A DNA stretch of 34,641 nt from Pseudomonadota bacterium (GTDB taxonomy: Bacteria > Pseudomonadota > Alphaproteobacteria > Rickettsiales > UBA3002): positions 1-34,641 of the forward strand of contig CAUJIC010000012.1 of the NCBI GenBank assembly GCA_963205305.1, in the 5' to 3' direction. Below the pieces are notes generated by a model. The model saw nothing but the letters and a program-made list of their open reading frames with translations, was not told the DNA's origin and did no database searches. The position numbers were made by a program, and so were the translations under genes. Positions 16,931 through 24,679 of the stretch are shown here, in pieces (within the stretch, counting starts at the first letter, position 1; each line of letters starts with the position of its first letter).

Positions 16931-17749
16931 TTGTTTAATCGCATTATAGCCTTAGGTATGAGCTCTATCATTCGTTCCAATCCGCTGGCCACGATCGGCC
17001 ATGTTGTGTCGTTGTTTCTGGCTTCAGTCGGACGTCTTGTGCTGTTCACGGGTAGCATTATCGGCCAGGGTATTCGCCCGCCTTATTACCCCAAACAACT
17101 TGGCCGCATGATTATCGAGATTGGCTATTACTCGCTGCCCGTGGTTGGCCTCACCACCTTGTTCACAGGCGCGGCACTGGCACTGCAATCCAACTCGGGC
17201 TTTGCCGATATGGGTGCCGAAAATTCCATCCCGCTCATTGTCGCGCTTGCTATCACGCGCGAACTTGGGCCTGTCATGGCTGGCCTCATGGTCGCGGGTC
17301 GCATTGGTGCCGCGTTTGCTGCTGAAATTGGTACCATGCGCGTAACGGAACAGGTCGATGCGCTCGTCACCCTCTCCACCAATCCCTTCAAATACCTCCT
17401 CTTCCCACGCCTGCTTGCCGCCACACTTATGCTGCCATGCCTTGTGTTCGTGGGCGATGTTATTGGTATTTTTGGTGGTTACGCCGTAAGCGTGAAAGCA
17501 CTTGGATTTTCGCCCATCCCCTACATCAATAACACATGGAACTTCCTCACATGGTACGATGTGAATACAGGGTTGGTGAAGGCTGCAGTGTTCGGCTTCA
17601 TTGTCGCGCTGATGGGCTGCTACCACGGCTATCACAGCAAGGGCGGCGCACAGGGTGTAGGCACCGCAACCACCAACGCAGTGGTGTCTGCGTCGATTCT
17701 CATTCTGCTCTCAAACTATCTCATCACCGAAGCCTTTTTTGGGATGTAA
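16931..17749 (+). CDS. mlaE: MlaE-type ABC transporter permease
   Basis: MlaE is the inner-membrane permease of the Mla phospholipid transport system that keeps the outer membrane asymmetric. The 272-residue protein has the MlaE domain: an amphipathic N-terminus, IEIGYYSLPVVGLTTLFTGAALALQ (about 59-83), ALAITRELGPVMAGLMVAGRIGAAFAAEIGTMRVTEQVDAL (about 104-144, the coupling region) and four to five membrane segments. A TTG at 16931, with a weak GGA site, gives the full amphipathic helix; ATG 16958 is the alternative. It ends four bases before mlaF. No mlaD, mlaC or mlaB is seen next to it, so the remaining parts are encoded elsewhere. Confidence 0.9.
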   Translation: MFNRIIALGMSSIIRSNPLATIGHVVSLFLASVGRLVLFTGSIIGQGIRPPYYPKQLGRMIIEIGYYSLPVVGLTTLFTGAALALQSNSGFADMGAENSIPLIVALAITRELGPVMAGLMVAGRIGAAFAAEIGTMRVTEQVDALVTLSTNPFKYLLFPRLLAATLMLPCLVFVGDVIGIFGGYAVSVKALGFSPIPYINNTWNFLTWYDVNTGLVKAAVFGFIVALMGCYHGYHSKGGAQGVGTATTNAVVSASILILLSNYLITEAFFGM

Positions 17750-17753
17750 CGCG

Positions 17754-18533
17754 ATGACCGAAACCCCAAAAATCAAACTCACCAACATCCATAAAAAATT
17801 CGGTTCCAAAGTCGTGCTTGATGGGGTGGATTTAAGTGTCATGCCGGGTGAATCGCTGGTTATCATTGGCGGTTCCGGTTCTGGCAAATCAGTCACCATC
17901 AAAAGCGTGCTTGGCCTTGTGAAGCCTGATTCAGGCACCATCGAGGTGGATGGCGAGGATGTGACCCACTACAACTTCAACCAGCGCGCACCCATGTTGC
18001 AAAAAGTTGGCATGCTGTTCCAAGGCGGCGCGCTGTTCGATTCGCTGCCTGTGTGGAAAAATATCACCTTTGGCAGCCGCGAACGCGGGCAACATTTAAG
18101 CAACGAAACCGCGCACGAACTTGCCATCGAAAAACTTGAGGCGGTTGGCCTCAAGCCCGAAGTGGCGGATATGCTACCTTCCGAACTCTCAGGCGGCATG
18201 CAAAAACGCGTCGGCCTCGCCCGCGCCATTGCTTCAAACCCTGATATTCTGTTCTTCGATGAACCCACCACTGGCCTCGACCCGATCATGTCCGATGTCA
18301 TCAACGAGCTGATCAGTTCGTGCGTGAAAAAACTTGGCTCCACCGCCGTAACGATTACGCACGACATGAGCTCGGTGCGCAAAATCGCGAGCCGTGTGGC
18401 CATGATTTACCAAGGCAAAATCATCTGGGATGGCCCCGTCAGCAAAATTGACAATTCAGGTAATCCCTACGTCGACCAGTTCGTACACGGTAAGGCCGAA
18501 GGCCCAATCACCAACGATTTCAAGCGGGCTTAG
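17754..18533 (+). CDS. mlaF: MlaF-type ABC transporter ATPase
   Basis: The 259-residue ATPase has Walker A GGSGSGKS (39-46), a Q-loop (MLFQGGALFDSL), the signature LSGGMQKRVGLARA, Walker B ILFFDEPTTGLDP and a switch histidine in ITHDMSS. The FQGGALFDSL and GGMQKRV variants are typical of MlaF rather than general importers. It powers MlaE in phospholipid transport. I use ATG 17754 instead of an in-frame TTG at 17739 that overlaps mlaE. The two genes form a pair; the next gene begins 56 bases later. Confidence 0.92.
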   Translation: MTETPKIKLTNIHKKFGSKVVLDGVDLSVMPGESLVIIGGSGSGKSVTIKSVLGLVKPDSGTIEVDGEDVTHYNFNQRAPMLQKVGMLFQGGALFDSLPVWKNITFGSRERGQHLSNETAHELAIEKLEAVGLKPEVADMLPSELSGGMQKRVGLARAIASNPDILFFDEPTTGLDPIMSDVINELISSCVKKLGSTAVTITHDMSSVRKIASRVAMIYQGKIIWDGPVSKIDNSGNPYVDQFVHGKAEGPITNDFKRA

Positions 18534-18589: not shown

Positions 18590-21115
18590 ATGGGTAACAT
18601 CCGACATTATATTGATTATAATCAGCTTTACAGCCTCTCCCTTCATTATGATGCTGGCAACAGACAGCTAAAGGTAGCGATTGATACGGGCGGCGATGCG
18701 CCACGGCTCAATCAAGCGCTGGCACGCGCATTAAATCTAGGCCCACAGGAATCAAAACCGAAACGCGCGGGCAATGTATTAACCTACCCTAACGTTAGCC
18801 GTGAATTTACATTATACTTGGGAAGTGAACCCATTGGTGAATACACCATTGATGCCGCAGCCACCCTTTCTCCCACCATGCGTCGCCCCCTCACGGTCGA
18901 CGAGACACGCCGTATGGGTACCTTCCATGACTGCGACCCCTACCCGCAGCTACGACCAACCCTCGATACTGGCGAACAGCAGACCCTTCTCAAAACTGCA
19001 AAAAGCGCCGTCTTCACCGACATTCACACCCACAGCTCTGGCCAAATTAGTGCCCGCGGCCTGCTCGAGGTGGCGATGCGTCACAAACCCTATTTTTACC
19101 CAACCGAACTGCTGCGTGAAGCAGGTATCAGCACGAGCACCTACGACATCCCTAGTAAAAAAGATCGCAGCAGTATCAAACGTATTCCCTTTCCACCACT
19201 CGAGCGCAAAGGCGAAGTATACCCCGATGAAGTAGATGCCATTAACCTGCACGCACTACCCGAGGCGGATCTTAGTAAGCTCGCCGCGCGAATGGCACTG
19301 CCTGCCGATCGCCAATCCACCTTCACGCAGCTCGAATATAACGGCAACCGCTTCCGTTACCCCTTCAGTAAGGATACCAAGCTCACCAAAGAAATTCGTA
19401 AGAAGGAAGCGCAGGAATATGCCGCACAGGGCGTTAATTTTGCCCTCACTGCCTATGTCGGACTCGACAACCCCGATACCTTACGCACCATTCACGAAGC
19501 CGTGGATGAACTGAAAGCCGACCCGCAGACACAAAACTTTGCTCAGCGCTACATGATTGGCATTCCACGCAAATTATCGTCGGAACAGCTCAAGGAAAAA
19601 CTCGATAAAGCACAAATTCTCCTCGATAGCCCCTACATCATGGGCGTCGATATTCTGGGGTACGAGGCCAACAAAACGAAAGAATTCGTAGAGCGACTCG
19701 ATGAATATGCTAAATGGGCGAACGAGCACAAACCTGGCTCATTCATCCGCGTGCATGCAGGCGAGAACGACAAGAACCACGACAACGTTAAAGACTTCCT
19801 CAAGATTGCGGTGAAATACCCCAACCTCAAATTCCTTGTGGGTCACGGGGTCTATGGCATGGACGAGGAAACGATCCGGCTCGCCAAAAAGCTTTGTAAG
19901 GACCCAAAGACCCCGCAACTCACCATCGAGTTCAATCCCTCTTCAAACATTGCACTGAACAACGTCGATGATTTAAGAAAAATACCGTTCGCCAAAGCCA
20001 TCGAGAACGGCATCCCCTTCACCGTCAGTTCCGATTCCGCTGGCATGTACCAGACCGACGCCAAACAGCTGGGCCTTGCTGCCTATTATGCGGGGCTCGA
20101 TGGCAAGGGTTTCGCAGCGCTGCACCACCACCAGCAGCGTCTTGTTTCCCATATGCAAGATTACTCGAAACGCGTTGCCGCAGCAATTCCACAGTGGAAT
20201 ACGACCGAGGGAAAACAGGCGCATTTTGACGCTATGTTTAAGCGCCTTGCTGCAGTGCAACGCGCTCCTGCCCCACCGAGCGAGGCCGTGGATGAAGCGC
20301 AGGTGGCTGACAAATTAACTGCCGAGCAAGTCACCCTCATTCACTCCCCCAAAGAGCGCGTCCCCGAATTCGAAGGCAAATTCCCCATCACGATTGTTGG
20401 CGCATCAGGCAGTAGCTGGAACAGCCTAAGTAAAGGCCAGCAACGCGAGAATGCCATTGCGGTCGATATGCTCATCCATGCGGTGGGCGACAAATGTTAT
20501 ATTGTGCAGGGACGCAACAAAAAAACTGGCTTAAGCAAAGTCATCAACCAAGCCCTGCGCGAGGCTAATACAACACGCAAACAAGCCGGAAAGCACGAGC
20601 TTTACAATGTCGGCTTGCTGGTGAACCCCAGCTTCGATGATGCAATAAGCCACAAGCATCTCACGCATATGGTGCGCATCGATGGCGAACCCCTCGTGCT
20701 AGCCGATGCCGTCGTCGACCACACCTTTGATCATCACGGCGTGCTGATTGCAGTCGGTGGCGCACAATATACGCGCGATATTATCCATGTTGCCGATCAG
20801 CGCGGTATCCACGCCAAAGAGCCCAACAATCGCAAAATGATGCTTTTGCTTGCCAATACCGAAGGCGCTTCTGCCGAGAAATCCACCGTACTTCACCCCG
20901 ATTATGCGGCTAGGGATGGCTGCCAGCTCTTAAGCAAACTCTACAAAAACCGACCTGATTTGTTTGCCTCAACCTTCAGAGCCAATGATATCAACACCCT
21001 TTACAGAGAATCCGCCGCGAGAGTTGCAAGCTATGGCTATAACAGCGTCGCCGAAACAGTGATTACCGGCCCACGCGAACTTGTGCCCACCAAAGCCGCT
21101 GGCCGCGCACCTTAA
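18590..21115 (+). CDS. adenosine-deaminase-like protein with a C-terminal LOG/SLOG-like domain
   Basis: The 841-residue protein has three parts. Residues 1-135 are unrecognised. Residues about 140-560 form an amidohydrolase domain of the adenosine deaminase type: FTDIHTHSSGQ (H146, H148), RVHAGEN (H389, E392), VGHGVYG (H419), IEFNPSSN and TVSSDSAGMY (D482), so all zinc ligands and the catalytic Glu are present. The second Asp of the usual DD pair is Ser483. Residues about 597-760 look like a Rossmann-type LOG/SLOG domain: ITIVGASGS, YIVQGRNKKTGLSKVINQALREA and VLIAVGGAQYTRDIIHVA. LOG enzymes cut N-glycosidic bonds of nucleotides. No signal peptide. It sits between mlaF and radA, normally close neighbours. 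Purine nucleoside or nucleotide processing is inferred; the deaminase fold is firm. Confidence 0.7.
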   Translation: MGNIRHYIDYNQLYSLSLHYDAGNRQLKVAIDTGGDAPRLNQALARALNLGPQESKPKRAGNVLTYPNVSREFTLYLGSEPIGEYTIDAAATLSPTMRRPLTVDETRRMGTFHDCDPYPQLRPTLDTGEQQTLLKTAKSAVFTDIHTHSSGQISARGLLEVAMRHKPYFYPTELLREAGISTSTYDIPSKKDRSSIKRIPFPPLERKGEVYPDEVDAINLHALPEADLSKLAARMALPADRQSTFTQLEYNGNRFRYPFSKDTKLTKEIRKKEAQEYAAQGVNFALTAYVGLDNPDTLRTIHEAVDELKADPQTQNFAQRYMIGIPRKLSSEQLKEKLDKAQILLDSPYIMGVDILGYEANKTKEFVERLDEYAKWANEHKPGSFIRVHAGENDKNHDNVKDFLKIAVKYPNLKFLVGHGVYGMDEETIRLAKKLCKDPKTPQLTIEFNPSSNIALNNVDDLRKIPFAKAIENGIPFTVSSDSAGMYQTDAKQLGLAAYYAGLDGKGFAALHHHQQRLVSHMQDYSKRVAAAIPQWNTTEGKQAHFDAMFKRLAAVQRAPAPPSEAVDEAQVADKLTAEQVTLIHSPKERVPEFEGKFPITIVGASGSSWNSLSKGQQRENAIAVDMLIHAVGDKCYIVQGRNKKTGLSKVINQALREANTTRKQAGKHELYNVGLLVNPSFDDAISHKHLTHMVRIDGEPLVLADAVVDHTFDHHGVLIAVGGAQYTRDIIHVADQRGIHAKEPNNRKMMLLLANTEGASAEKSTVLHPDYAARDGCQLLSKLYKNRPDLFASTFRANDINTLYRESAARVASYGYNSVAETVITGPRELVPTKAAGRAP

Positions 21116-21153: not shown

Positions 21154-22506
21154 ATGGCCAAAAATTCCAACCAATATGTCTGCCAAGCCTGCGGTGCCGT
21201 CAGCCACAAATGGGCAGGGCGGTGCGATTCTTGCGGCGAGTGGAACACGATTGTCGAGGAATCCATCACCGTCACCCCCAAGGGCATGAAGCCCGGAAAA
21301 TCCAAGGGTCTCGAGATTGCCAGCCTCGCCGATACAGTGGCACCCCATGCGCGCGAATCGACAGGCATTGCCGAGCTTGACCGTGTGCTGGGCGGTGGTC
21401 TCGTCGAAGGTTCCGCCATTCTTCTCGGCGGCGATCCTGGCATCGGAAAATCTACCCTACTGCTACAAGCTGCATCCACCCTCGCCCGTGGTGGGCGCGA
21501 TGTGCTATATGTGAGTGGCGAGGAATCGCTCGCGCAAATTCAACTCCGCAGCCAGCGCCTTGGGCTTGCCAATGCCCCCCTCAAACTCGCCACCGCCACC
21601 AGTGTGCGTGAAATTTTGGCCAGCATCGATAGTGGCCAAGCACCCGATGTGGTGGTGATCGATTCCATCCAGACCATGTTCGTCGATTCGCTGGATTCCG
21701 CGCCAGGCACCGTCGCCCAAGTGCGTGCCTCCACGCACGAGCTCATCCGCGCGGCCAAAAAGCGCGGCTTCTCGCTCATCCTCGTCGGGCACGTTACTAA
21801 GGATGGCCAAATCGCCGGCCCACGCGTGCTCGAGCATATGGTCGATACCGTGCTCTATTTCGAGGGTGACCGTGGGCAATATTACCGCATCCTGCGCGCG
21901 GTGAAAAACCGCTTCGGCGCGACGGATGAAATCGGCGTGTTCGCCATGAGCGATACAGGGCTCGAGGAAGTCAAAAACCCATCTGCCCTTTTCCTCCACG
22001 CACGCGAAAACCCCGTCAGCGGTGCCGCCGTATTTGCGGGTATGGAGGGTACACGCCCACTACTCGTCGAAATTCAAGCCCTCGTTTCCCCCTCCACCAT
22101 GTCCACCCCCCGCCGCGCCACGGTGGGCTATGACGGCGCGCGACTCTCCATGATTCTCGCCGTGCTCGAAACCCGCGCTGGCATGCGCTTTTCGGATAAA
22201 GAAGTGTTCCTCAATGTCGCGGGCGGCCTCAAAATCAGCGAGCCCGCGGCCGATGTGGCCGTCGCCATGGCGCTGCTTTCGGCGCTACTCGATAAACCGC
22301 TGCCCAACAGCCTTGTGGGGTTTGGTGAAATTGGCCTCACGGGTGAAATCCGCTCCGTCAGCCGCACGGATACTCGGCTTAAGGAGGCGCTAGCCCTTGG
22401 TTTCACCAAAGCCATCATCCCCACCAGCAGCCCTGAAAAATTAAACGCCGGCGAGCGTGTCGCCCATGTAGACGCGCTTGTGCGTTTTATGCTAGAGAAC
22501 GGCTGA
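21154..22506 (+). CDS. radA: DNA repair protein RadA
   Basis: RadA is a RecA-like, hexameric branch-migration ATPase of recombination repair. The 450-residue protein has the N-terminal C4 zinc finger (C10, C13, C24, C27), Walker A GDPGIGKST (93-101), YVSGEES, Walker B VVIDSIQTM, the RadA-specific KNRFG motif (KNRFGATDEIGVF) and the C-terminal Lon-like domain (AVLETRAGMRF, then GGLKISEPAADVAVAMALLSAL and FGEIGLTGEIRSV). Length and order are canonical. It begins 38 bases after the deaminase-like gene, without a strong ribosome binding site, and is followed closely by cvpA. Confidence 0.96.
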   Translation: MAKNSNQYVCQACGAVSHKWAGRCDSCGEWNTIVEESITVTPKGMKPGKSKGLEIASLADTVAPHARESTGIAELDRVLGGGLVEGSAILLGGDPGIGKSTLLLQAASTLARGGRDVLYVSGEESLAQIQLRSQRLGLANAPLKLATATSVREILASIDSGQAPDVVVIDSIQTMFVDSLDSAPGTVAQVRASTHELIRAAKKRGFSLILVGHVTKDGQIAGPRVLEHMVDTVLYFEGDRGQYYRILRAVKNRFGATDEIGVFAMSDTGLEEVKNPSALFLHARENPVSGAAVFAGMEGTRPLLVEIQALVSPSTMSTPRRATVGYDGARLSMILAVLETRAGMRFSDKEVFLNVAGGLKISEPAADVAVAMALLSALLDKPLPNSLVGFGEIGLTGEIRSVSRTDTRLKEALALGFTKAIIPTSSPEKLNAGERVAHVDALVRFMLENG

Positions 22507-22541
22507 CCCCTTACTGCTAACCACAAATAGCTAGGCTTTCC

Positions 22542-23243
22542 ATGGTTGAAACATCGATGAATATCTTCGATTTGGGCGTGCTGATTATTGTCGGCTTGTC
22601 GGCGCTGTTATCGTTCTTCCGTGGCTTTGTGCGCGAAATTCTCTCGCTCGGCGCGTGGATGGGCGCCACCATCATCACCCTCTACATGTTCCCCAGCGCC
22701 ACCAAATTCATCGAGCCACATGTGGGCAGTGCGGTAATTGCCAGCGGCCTTGCCTCCATCGGCCTGTTCTTTGTCGCACTGATTTCTATCTCGATCATCA
22801 CCAGCCTCGTGCTCAAATTCCTCAAAACCGGTTCCGAGGTCGGCGTCCTCGATAACCTTGTCGGCCTGTGTTTTGGTGTAGCACGCGGAGTTCTAATTGT
22901 GGCGATTGCCTATTTCATCATGAGTGTGATGCTGGTCGAGAAAGATTACCCTGATTGGGTGATGGAAGCAAAAACCCAGCCCTTCATTGCGAAAGCGGCG
23001 AAGCTTGTGGGCACCCTCACCCCCAGCTACCTCGATACCATCACCGATAAAGACAAAGAAAAATCCGACGATACAGATATAAAAGATACCAAAAAGCAAA
23101 TGAACGAAATCATCCAGAAATGGGACAAAAAAGCCAAAGATAAACTCGATGATCTCGCGACCGAAGAAGAACTACCCGCTTCGTCGCTACCCTCGATCGA
23201 GGATTTGCAAAAACGCATCAAAGAAGAGAACAGGAACCGCTAA
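22542..23243 (+). CDS. cvpA: CvpA family membrane protein
   Basis: The 233-residue protein has the CvpA domain: an N-terminal membrane segment (LGVLIIVGLSALLSFFRG), the GFVREILSLGAWMGA signature, and further segments around 60-80 and 105-130, followed by a charged Lys/Asp/Glu tail (about 165-233). CvpA is linked to colicin V production and envelope integrity in E. coli; it commonly precedes purF, as here. ATG 22542 follows TAGG; an ATG at 22557 is a close alternative. Its TAA shares a base with the purF ATG (TAATG), so the two are coupled. Confidence 0.88.
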   Translation: MVETSMNIFDLGVLIIVGLSALLSFFRGFVREILSLGAWMGATIITLYMFPSATKFIEPHVGSAVIASGLASIGLFFVALISISIITSLVLKFLKTGSEVGVLDNLVGLCFGVARGVLIVAIAYFIMSVMLVEKDYPDWVMEAKTQPFIAKAAKLVGTLTPSYLDTITDKDKEKSDDTDIKDTKKQMNEIIQKWDKKAKDKLDDLATEEELPASSLPSIEDLQKRIKEENRNR

Positions 23244-24679
23244 TGTTCGATAAATTCAACGATGAATGTGGCGTCTTTGGCATCTTCGGCTCGACCAGCG
23301 CTGCCGCCCACACGGCACTCGGCCTTCACGCGCTACAACATCGCGGACAGGAAGCCGCAGGTATTGTCAGTTGCCTTGATGGTCAGTTTTTCTCGCACCG
23401 CGCCATGGGCTTGGTGGGCGATAATTTCTCCGATGCGGCGGTGATGAACCGCCTGCAAGGCGCATCCGCCATCGGCCATAACCGTTACTCCACCACGGGC
23501 GAAACGCTGCTGCGCAACGTGCAACCGTTCTATGCTGATTTGGCGCTTGGCGGGTTCGCACTGGCCCATAACGGCAACCTCACCAACGCCATCACCCTGC
23601 GCCGTGAGCTTATCGCGCGTGGTTCGCTGTTCGCCTCTACGTCCGATACCGAGGTCATTGTCCACCGCGTCGCCCTCTCGCGCAGCGCCGCGATTGAAGA
23701 CCGCGTGATTGATGCACTCAAATTGGTTGAGGGTGCTTATTCACTGGTCATCCTCGCGCCCAAATCGCTCATCGGCGTGCGCGACCCCAACGGCGTGCGC
23801 CCATTGGTGCTGGGCAAACTTGGTGATGCCCACATCATCACCTCGGAAACCTGTGCGCTCGATATCATCGGCGCTGAACATGTGCGCGATGTCGAGCCAG
23901 GTGAAATGATTATTGTCGATGAAAGCGGCGTGCGGAGTCTGTTCCCCTTTGCTGCACAACCACCGCGCTTCTGCATTTTCGAATATGTCTATTTCGCGCG
24001 GCCCGATTCGGTGATGCAGAACACTAGTGTCTATGCGGTGCGTAAACGTATCGGCGCCGAGCTCGCGCGTGAGTTTGGCGTGGCGGCCGATGTGGTCGTC
24101 CCCGTGCCCGATTCGGGCGTACCTGGCGCCATTGGCTATGCCGAAACTGCGGGTATACCGTTCGATTTAGGCATCATCCGCAACCATTATGTTGGCCGCA
24201 CCTTTATCGAACCATCGGAATCGGTGCGTCACCTTGGTGTTAAACTCAAGCACAATGCCAACAGCGCATTGCTGAAAGGCAAGCGGGTTATTTTGGTCGA
24301 TGACTCCATCGTGCGCGGCACCACTTCGAAAAAAATTGTCACCATGGTGCGCGAGGCAGGCGCAAGCGAAGTGCATATGCGTATCGCGAGCCCACCGACC
24401 ACCAACCCCTGTTTTTATGGAGTAGATACACCCGAAAAATCGCAACTCATGGCCGCGAACCACACGATCGATGAAATGGCCAAAATCATCGGTGTTGACT
24501 CGCTCGCATTCCTTACCATGGATGGCCTCTACCGCGCCGTGGGCGAAGCGAAGCGCAACAACGAACTGCCGCAATATTGCGACGCGTGCTTTAGCGGCGA
24601 ATACCCCATTGCGCTGACGGATAACGCCTCAGGCATCAGCGGTAACCAGAAGGATCTCTTCGTGAAAGACGTGGCGTGA
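23243..24679 (+). CDS. purF: amidophosphoribosyltransferase
   Basis: PurF makes 5-phosphoribosylamine from PRPP and glutamine, the first step of purine synthesis. The 478-residue protein begins with an eight-residue propeptide, after which Cys9 (ECGVFGI) becomes the N-terminal nucleophile of the glutaminase domain. HNRYSTTGE, HNGNL and SDTEVI belong to that domain. The phosphoribosyltransferase half has the PRPP motif VILVDDSIVRGTTSKK (about 349-364). Cysteines at 244, 390, 446 and 449 match the 4Fe-4S ligands of the B. subtilis-type enzyme, so it is probably oxygen-sensitive and processed. Its stop overlaps a GTG start of the next gene. Confidence 0.96.
   Translation: MFDKFNDECGVFGIFGSTSAAAHTALGLHALQHRGQEAAGIVSCLDGQFFSHRAMGLVGDNFSDAAVMNRLQGASAIGHNRYSTTGETLLRNVQPFYADLALGGFALAHNGNLTNAITLRRELIARGSLFASTSDTEVIVHRVALSRSAAIEDRVIDALKLVEGAYSLVILAPKSLIGVRDPNGVRPLVLGKLGDAHIITSETCALDIIGAEHVRDVEPGEMIIVDESGVRSLFPFAAQPPRFCIFEYVYFARPDSVMQNTSVYAVRKRIGAELAREFGVAADVVVPVPDSGVPGAIGYAETAGIPFDLGIIRNHYVGRTFIEPSESVRHLGVKLKHNANSALLKGKRVILVDDSIVRGTTSKKIVTMVREAGASEVHMRIASPPTTNPCFYGVDTPEKSQLMAANHTIDEMAKIIGVDSLAFLTMDGLYRAVGEAKRNNELPQYCDACFSGEYPIALTDNASGISGNQKDLFVKDVA

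What the first reader, a model, noticed from the sequence alone, without database searches (positions are those of the whole stretch)
18590..21115. Adenosine-deaminase-like domain fused to a LOG/SLOG-like domain
The 841-aa protein has all ADA zinc ligands (H146, H148, H389, D482) and E392, and a C-terminal Rossmann-type block with IVGASGS, GRNKKTGLSKVIN and VGGAQYTRDI, matching the layout of LOG phosphoribohydrolases. A single protein that could deaminate and cleave purine nucleosides or nucleotides would be unusual. It is inserted between mlaF and radA.
Basis: partly seen in the sequence, partly recalled or inferred. Interest (0 to 1): 0.75.

Follow-up and report, generated by a model that had tools for sequence, protein, structure and literature searches.

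The report
Deaminase fused to nucleotide-binding SLOG domain
A family of proteins in Rickettsiales-like bacteria joins a zinc nucleotide-deaminase barrel to a LOG/TRPM-type nucleotide-binding domain and sits in a fast-changing slot between two housekeeping genes, which looks like a new way of building a sensor-controlled enzyme that alters purine nucleotides.

Summary
Window 18590-21115 (+) encodes an 841-aa protein. Its predicted structure (pLDDT 88) has a small N-terminal beta domain, an adenosine-deaminase barrel (126-528; Z up to 29.9) and a C-terminal LOG/SLOG-type Rossmann domain (590-790; Z 16 to TM1055 and TRPM2/TRPM4, 14.8 to LOG). All homologues found (30 in the tree) carry both parts.

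The reading is partly right. The ADA zinc set is invariant. Two Asp that contact adenosine in canonical ADA (Asp19, Asp296) are lost in every member, the same two lost in the CRISPR deaminase Cad1, which deaminates ATP rather than adenosine. The C-terminal domain lacks the LOG catalytic motifs (MHxRK, PGGxGTxxE) and has no detectable LOG sequence similarity, so 'deaminate and cleave' is not supported; a ligand-sensing SLOG is more likely.

The gene lies between mlaF and radA in 12 of 14 genomes of its family, as two non-monophyletic versions on opposite strands (p-AU 1.6e-6). A thirteenth genome has an ITPase-LOG fusion in the same slot. Best model: a single-protein, SLOG-controlled deaminase of phosphorylated purine nucleotides, working like Cad1. 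No activity is shown. No ADA-SLOG fusion was found described in the paper library.

The parts
18590..21115 (+). ADA-SLOG fusion gene, 841 aa
   Evidence: AlphaFold2 model pLDDT 87.9, pTM 0.88
18590..18883 (+). N-terminal beta-rich domain, residues 1-98; no fold assigned; mean identity 27% between members
   Evidence: DSSP of the model
18965..20179 (+). adenosine-deaminase-type metal TIM barrel, about residues 126-530
   Evidence: Pfam A_deaminase E=3e-12; VIA Z 29.9 to 8qch_G, 27.0 to 1add, 25.8 to Cad1 9of1_B
19025..19033 (+). H146-T-H148 zinc ligands; the Asp19 position of mouse ADA is S150 (S or T in 22/22)
19754..19765 (+). H389-A-G-E392: zinc ligand and catalytic Glu
   Evidence: invariant H and E
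19841..19846 (+). G418-H419: H238 equivalent of mouse ADA
   Evidence: H419 invariant
20030..20044 (+). S481-D482-S-A-G485: zinc Asp kept; the Asp296 position is S, G or A in 22/22
20372..20959 (+). LOG/SLOG-type Rossmann domain, about residues 595-790
   Evidence: own AF2 model pLDDT 91.6; VIA Z 16.1 to TM1055, 16.0 to TRPM2 and TRPM4, 14.8 to LOG 5zbl
20399..20410 (+). GAS(G) loop 604-607
   Evidence: G604 and A605 invariant
20510..20530 (+). GRxKxxG loop 641-647, likely phosphate-contacting (inference)
   Evidence: G641, R642, G647 invariant, K644 21/22
20756..20779 (+). GGxx[YF]xx[DE] loop 723-730, at the place of LOG PGGxGTxxE
   Evidence: the position match is inferred from strand/loop order
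16931..18533 (+). flank: mlaE and mlaF (lipid-transport ABC permease and ATPase)
   Evidence: Pfam
21154..24679 (+). flank: radA, cvpA, purF
   Evidence: Pfam; same order in L022, L033, L039, L078

Best explanation
The protein is a single-chain, ligand-controlled purine-nucleotide deaminase. The barrel removes the 6-amino group from a 5'-phosphorylated adenine nucleotide (ATP or dATP most likely), giving the inosine nucleotide. The C-terminal SLOG domain binds a nucleotide-like ligand (AMP-, ADP-ribose- or cADPR-like) through its GAS, GRxKxxG and GGx[FY] loops and controls the barrel, as CARF does in Cad1 and SLOG does for the sirtuin in ThsA. Shown: both folds (predicted), the invariant metal site, the loss of the two adenosine-contacting Asp, the conserved SLOG loops, universal fusion, and the fast-changing slot. 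Inferred: substrate, ligand, direction of control, and that the outcome is a change of the nucleotide pool, in defence or in stress control.
For: The ADA barrel with all metal ligands is conserved. Asp19 and Asp296 of canonical ADA are both lost in 22/22; TaqCad1, which deaminates ATP and lacks adenosine activity, has lost the same two (Gly264, Asn549; PMC12669630). Cad1 is a weak sequence relative of this ADA part (PADLOC CARF_ADA in 10 of 22 members, best 9e-12; PDB profile 2e-5). The C-terminal fold is nearest TM1055, the MHR1/2 region of TRPM2/4/8 and the molybdenum-cofactor carrier, and lacks LOG catalytic motifs. SLOG domains are described as sensors of cADPR variants in ThsA (PMC9503650; PMC11204291 abstract). 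The genes flanking the slot are 60-85% identical between genomes while the slot gene is mostly 29-59%, and it has been swapped in place.
Against: No activity or ligand is shown. In Cad1, restoring the two Asp did not restore adenosine activity, so their loss does not fix the substrate. Presence in 12 of 14 family genomes at one locus is more regular than a typical defence gene, and no partner gene, CRISPR operon or mobile element was seen beside it. An acidic residue persists at the LOG Glu position in 21 of 22 members, so some catalysis by the SLOG part is not excluded.
Confidence: 0.45

Rival explanations
1. Housekeeping purine enzyme: a constitutive deaminase for salvage of (host-derived) adenine nucleotides. 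The SLOG domain is a metabolite-sensing or structural part without any role in conflict.
For: One copy per genome at a fixed place in 12 of 14 family genomes; it is the only A_deaminase in the window's genome; purF lies three genes downstream; no phage or plasmid carries it.
Against: Fast divergence and in-place replacement by a non-orthologous version and by an unrelated fusion; absent from most of the order (found in about 22 of 344 genomes); substrate residues of canonical salvage ADA are not kept.
Confidence: 0.27
2. Bifunctional enzyme: the barrel deaminates and the SLOG domain cleaves the N-glycosidic bond, releasing hypoxanthine.
For: LOG-type fold; an acidic residue at the LOG Glu position in 21/22; in the same order LOG domains with intact motifs are fused or adjacent to HAM1, DeoC, CDA-like and ADA enzymes, so nucleotide breakdown by linked enzymes probably exists there.
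Against: The MHxRK motif is absent and PGGxGT is changed in all members, while the order's other LOG fusions that were read keep them. No sequence similarity to LOG.
Confidence: 0.15
3. Effector delivered into a eukaryotic host cell (for instance by the type IV secretion system) that changes host adenine nucleotides.
For: VirB4 in all 11 tested genomes, two or more copies in most; fast evolution; one copy forms the N-terminus of a giant ORF of more than 5,280 aa.
Against: No signal peptide was seen by eye, and the C-terminal tails are short with no consistent positive charge (net -1 to +5). The fixed place next to housekeeping genes is not typical of effectors.
Confidence: 0.08

Closest known systems
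Cad1 / CARF-ADA (type III CRISPR ATP deaminase)
   Same: ADA barrel fused to a Rossmann-type nucleotide-binding domain; both Asp19 and Asp296 equivalents lost; measurable though distant sequence similarity.
   Different: CARF is N-terminal and of another fold class; here a SLOG-type domain is C-terminal and a beta domain N-terminal; no CRISPR genes beside it in the neighbours read.
ThsA (SIR2-SLOG effector of Thoeris)
   Same: An enzyme domain followed by a C-terminal SLOG domain in one chain (PMC7272460).
   Different: The effector is a sirtuin NADase, not a deaminase; there is no TIR partner next to it here; ThsA SLOG is of the STALD family, while this one is nearest TM1055/TRPM by fold.
LOG phosphoribohydrolases (Pfam PF03641)
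   Same: Fold (Z 14.8 to 5zbl), same order of nucleotide-binding loops.
   Different: Catalytic motifs missing; no sequence similarity found.
TRPM channel MHR1/2 region and TM1055 (LSDAT-type SLOG)
   Same: Best fold matches of the C-terminal domain (Z 16); TRPM2 structures hold ADP-ribose-type ligands.
   Different: No sequence similarity found; whether the ligand pocket is the same was not tested.
RADAR RdrB (ATP deaminase)
   Same: Large bacterial ADA-fold protein acting on nucleotides.
   Different: No adjacent RdrA ATPase; the RdrB-like L045 keeps the SDDP motif; no SLOG domain.

Membership tests
zinc adenosine deaminase superfamily (PF00962) | metal TIM barrel fold | tested here: met
   Z 26-30 over about 315 residues; Pfam over cut-off
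zinc adenosine deaminase superfamily (PF00962) | HxH, HAGE His/Glu, GH, Asp295 metal and catalytic set | tested here: met
   all invariant in 22/22
canonical adenosine deaminase (EC 3.5.4.4) | Asp19 and Asp296 (HxHLD and SDDP) that contact adenosine | tested here: not met
   S/T and G/S/A in 22/22
canonical adenosine deaminase (EC 3.5.4.4) | deamination of adenosine | not testable with these tools
   needs an assay
SLOG superfamily | Rossmannoid fold of the Smf/DprA-LOG kind | tested here: met
   TM1055, TRPM, LOG, PpnN and DprA in Foldseek; TM1055, TRPM and LOG at Z 14-16 in VIA
SLOG superfamily | match to a Pfam SLOG family model | tested here: inconclusive
   no hit in 21 members; fold-level relation only
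LOG phosphoribohydrolase | PGGxGTxxE and MHxRK catalytic motifs | tested here: not met
LOG phosphoribohydrolase | sequence-profile similarity to LOG | tested here: inconclusive
   hhalign probability 0.3-0.7% against LOGs of the same order; shallow alignments
LOG phosphoribohydrolase | release of the base from a nucleoside monophosphate | not testable with these tools
   needs an assay
Cad1 (CARF-ADA) | CARF domain fused to ADA | tested here: not met
   the other domains are an N-terminal beta domain and a C-terminal SLOG; the PADLOC match covers only the ADA part
Cad1 (CARF-ADA) | ATP-to-ITP activity switched on by a nucleotide signal | not testable with these tools
   needs an assay
RADAR | RdrA ATPase next to the deaminase | tested here: not met
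   the neighbours are mlaF and radA

The most novel reading that the evidence does not exclude
A one-gene immune or stress switch: a SLOG domain senses an NAD- or ADP-ribose-derived signal and turns on a barrel that converts ATP/dATP to ITP/dITP. It is kept in a dedicated chromosomal slot whose occupants (two ADA-SLOG versions, an ITPase-LOG fusion) are exchanged between lineages and all act on the purine-nucleotide pool.
Probability: 0.2. Interest if true: 0.85.

Novelty: new variant of a known kind. Interest (0 to 1): 0.6.

Why it matters
It would be a third way, beside Cad1 and RADAR, of controlling an ATP-type deaminase, with a SLOG domain in the place of CARF. It would link the deaminase and ADP-ribose/SLOG signalling worlds in one protein. 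Because it sits in one swappable slot of Rickettsiales-like genomes, it also gives a testable question: what pressure keeps a purine-nucleotide enzyme there and renews it? The protein is soluble-looking and self-contained, so substrate and ligand can be tested directly.

Tried and rejected
Single-protein scan of genome contigs found nothing; the alignment scan found 23 loci. No relatives in viral contigs, phages or plasmids. LOG homology by sequence profile: none. LSDAT_prok (PF18171) search to obtain a comparison set: only one sub-threshold hit in 249 genomes. Type IV secretion tail signal: tails are not consistently basic. ATP/ADP translocase (TLC) not found, but the control also rang nowhere, so this is uninformative. 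RdrB: L045 (G952) is an RdrB-like ADA, not a member. The second full-length-looking hit, L044, is an ordinary ADA in an open frame that runs on upstream. Viral fold library: no match at E <= 0.001. The gag-asp protease hit at 24-58 is sub-threshold. The N-terminal beta domain was not folded alone, so its fold stays unassigned. CRISPR arrays were not searched for genome-wide.

Full report
OBSERVATION. The ORF at 18590-21115 (+) is real and intact: ATG start, 841 aa, 56 bases after mlaF and 38 before radA. Across 22 aligned homologues H146, H148, H389, E392, H419 and D482 never vary.

FOLD. With a 22-sequence alignment of window and genome-contig homologues, AlphaFold2 gives a confident model (pLDDT 87.9, pTM 0.88). 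Residues 126-528 are an adenosine-deaminase barrel (VIA Z 29.9, rmsd 3.4, 317 aligned to 8qch_G; 27.0 to 1add; 25.8 to Cad1 9of1_B). Residues 590-790 folded alone (pLDDT 91.6) match the SLOG class: TM1055 1rcu Z 16.1 (rmsd 2.7, 158 aligned), TRPM2 9jje Z 16.0 (rmsd 2.6, 183 aligned), TRPM4 9mt8 Z 16.0, molybdenum-cofactor carrier 2iz5 Z 15.3, LOG 5zbl Z 14.8. At sequence level the C-terminal domain is an orphan: no Pfam LOG/SLOG hit in any member, no convincing PDB sequence relative, no profile similarity to LOGs of the same order.

ACTIVE SITES. In the ADA part the metal and catalytic set is complete, but the two Asp that hold adenosine in canonical ADA are gone in all members: Asp19 is Ser/Thr150, and Asp296 is Gly/Ser/Ala483 (ungapped motif alignment, mouse numbering from general knowledge). 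The Cad1 literature reports the same double loss in an enzyme that lacks adenosine activity and converts ATP to ITP (PMC12669630; PMC11645235). That paper also shows that putting the Asp back does not restore adenosine activity, so the parallel is suggestive only. In the SLOG part the three nucleotide loops are conserved (GAS, GRxKxxG, GGx[FY]), but the LOG motif MHxRK is absent and PGGxGTxxE is altered, keeping only an acidic residue at its end (18 D, 3 E, 1 A). Canonical LOGs of the same order, and the other LOG fusions that I read, keep the motifs. A binding or sensing role is therefore better supported than N-glycosidic cleavage.

DISTRIBUTION. Full-length homologues occur in 12 of 14 genomes of the window's family, in two further families of the order, and in two families elsewhere in the class, orders not determined. 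A 398-genome phylum sample held none besides the window's own genome. Named records are Rickettsiales and other Alphaproteobacteria MAGs, with two titled Deltaproteobacteria. The C-terminal domain was not found without the ADA part in 344 genomes, apart from one weak partial hit. One genome (G262) has three copies, one of them the N-terminal module of a giant ORF of more than 5,280 aa.

THE SLOT. In all 12 family genomes the gene lies beside mlaF, and between mlaF and radA wherever the contig reaches. In four (G000, G001, G003, G009) it is on the strand of its neighbours; in eight it is on the opposite strand. The slot genes are not one clade (best tree 81 log units better; p-AU 1.6e-6): the window's version groups with a homologue from another family of the order. 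G000 and G002 are of one genus with mlaF 84% and radA 85% identical, yet their slot genes are 29% identical and inverted. A replacement in place is the simplest reading. In G005 the same slot (alr-mlaE-mlaF-X-radA-cvpA-purF) holds a 940-aa protein with HAM1 (ITP/XTP pyrophosphatase family) and LOG domains. G012 is unresolved: only a radA fragment was found.

MECHANISM. The best-supported reading is a SLOG-controlled deaminase of phosphorylated purine nucleotides, by analogy with Cad1 (sensor plus ADA) and ThsA (enzyme plus SLOG; PMC7272460; PMC9503650). Domains, metal site, substitutions and slot behaviour are shown; substrate, ligand and biological role are inferred. A housekeeping salvage role is the strongest rival, because the gene is so regular in its family.

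NOVELTY. Word searches of the paper library for ADA with SLOG or LOG fusions found no such description. That covers only the held open-access papers. I rate it a new variant of a known kind: a new sensor-deaminase combination built of known folds.

Noticed in passing
L078:7389-10211 (-) (G005): A 940-aa HAM1 (ITPase-like) plus LOG fusion occupies the same mlaF-radA slot that holds ADA-SLOG in the other family genomes; its LOG motifs look catalytically complete.
   Followed up: partly
L079:1434-9063 (G020, contig 47): Cluster of nucleotide enzymes: two CDA-like deaminases, two LOG-domain proteins and a separate ADA-like gene, in part overlapping like an operon.
   Followed up: partly
L080:5538-7790 (-) (G006): LOG domain fused to a DeoC-type aldolase domain (750 aa), suggesting breakdown of deoxynucleotides in one protein.
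   Followed up: no
L055:15146 to L057 end (G262, contig 4): Giant ORF of more than 5,280 aa with a complete ADA-SLOG module at its N-terminus; 3,699 aa of the remainder have no Pfam match.
   Followed up: partly
L028, L042: MAGs titled Deltaproteobacteria carry versions close to those of MAGs titled Proteobacteria (L024, L023, L027); either misnamed bins or transfer.
   Followed up: no
L045:324-2774 (+) (G952): RdrB-like (RADAR) deaminase, 816 aa, in another class of the phylum.
   Followed up: no
eleven genomes incl. G000: VirB4 (type IV secretion) in all eleven tested genomes, two or more copies in nine.
   Followed up: no
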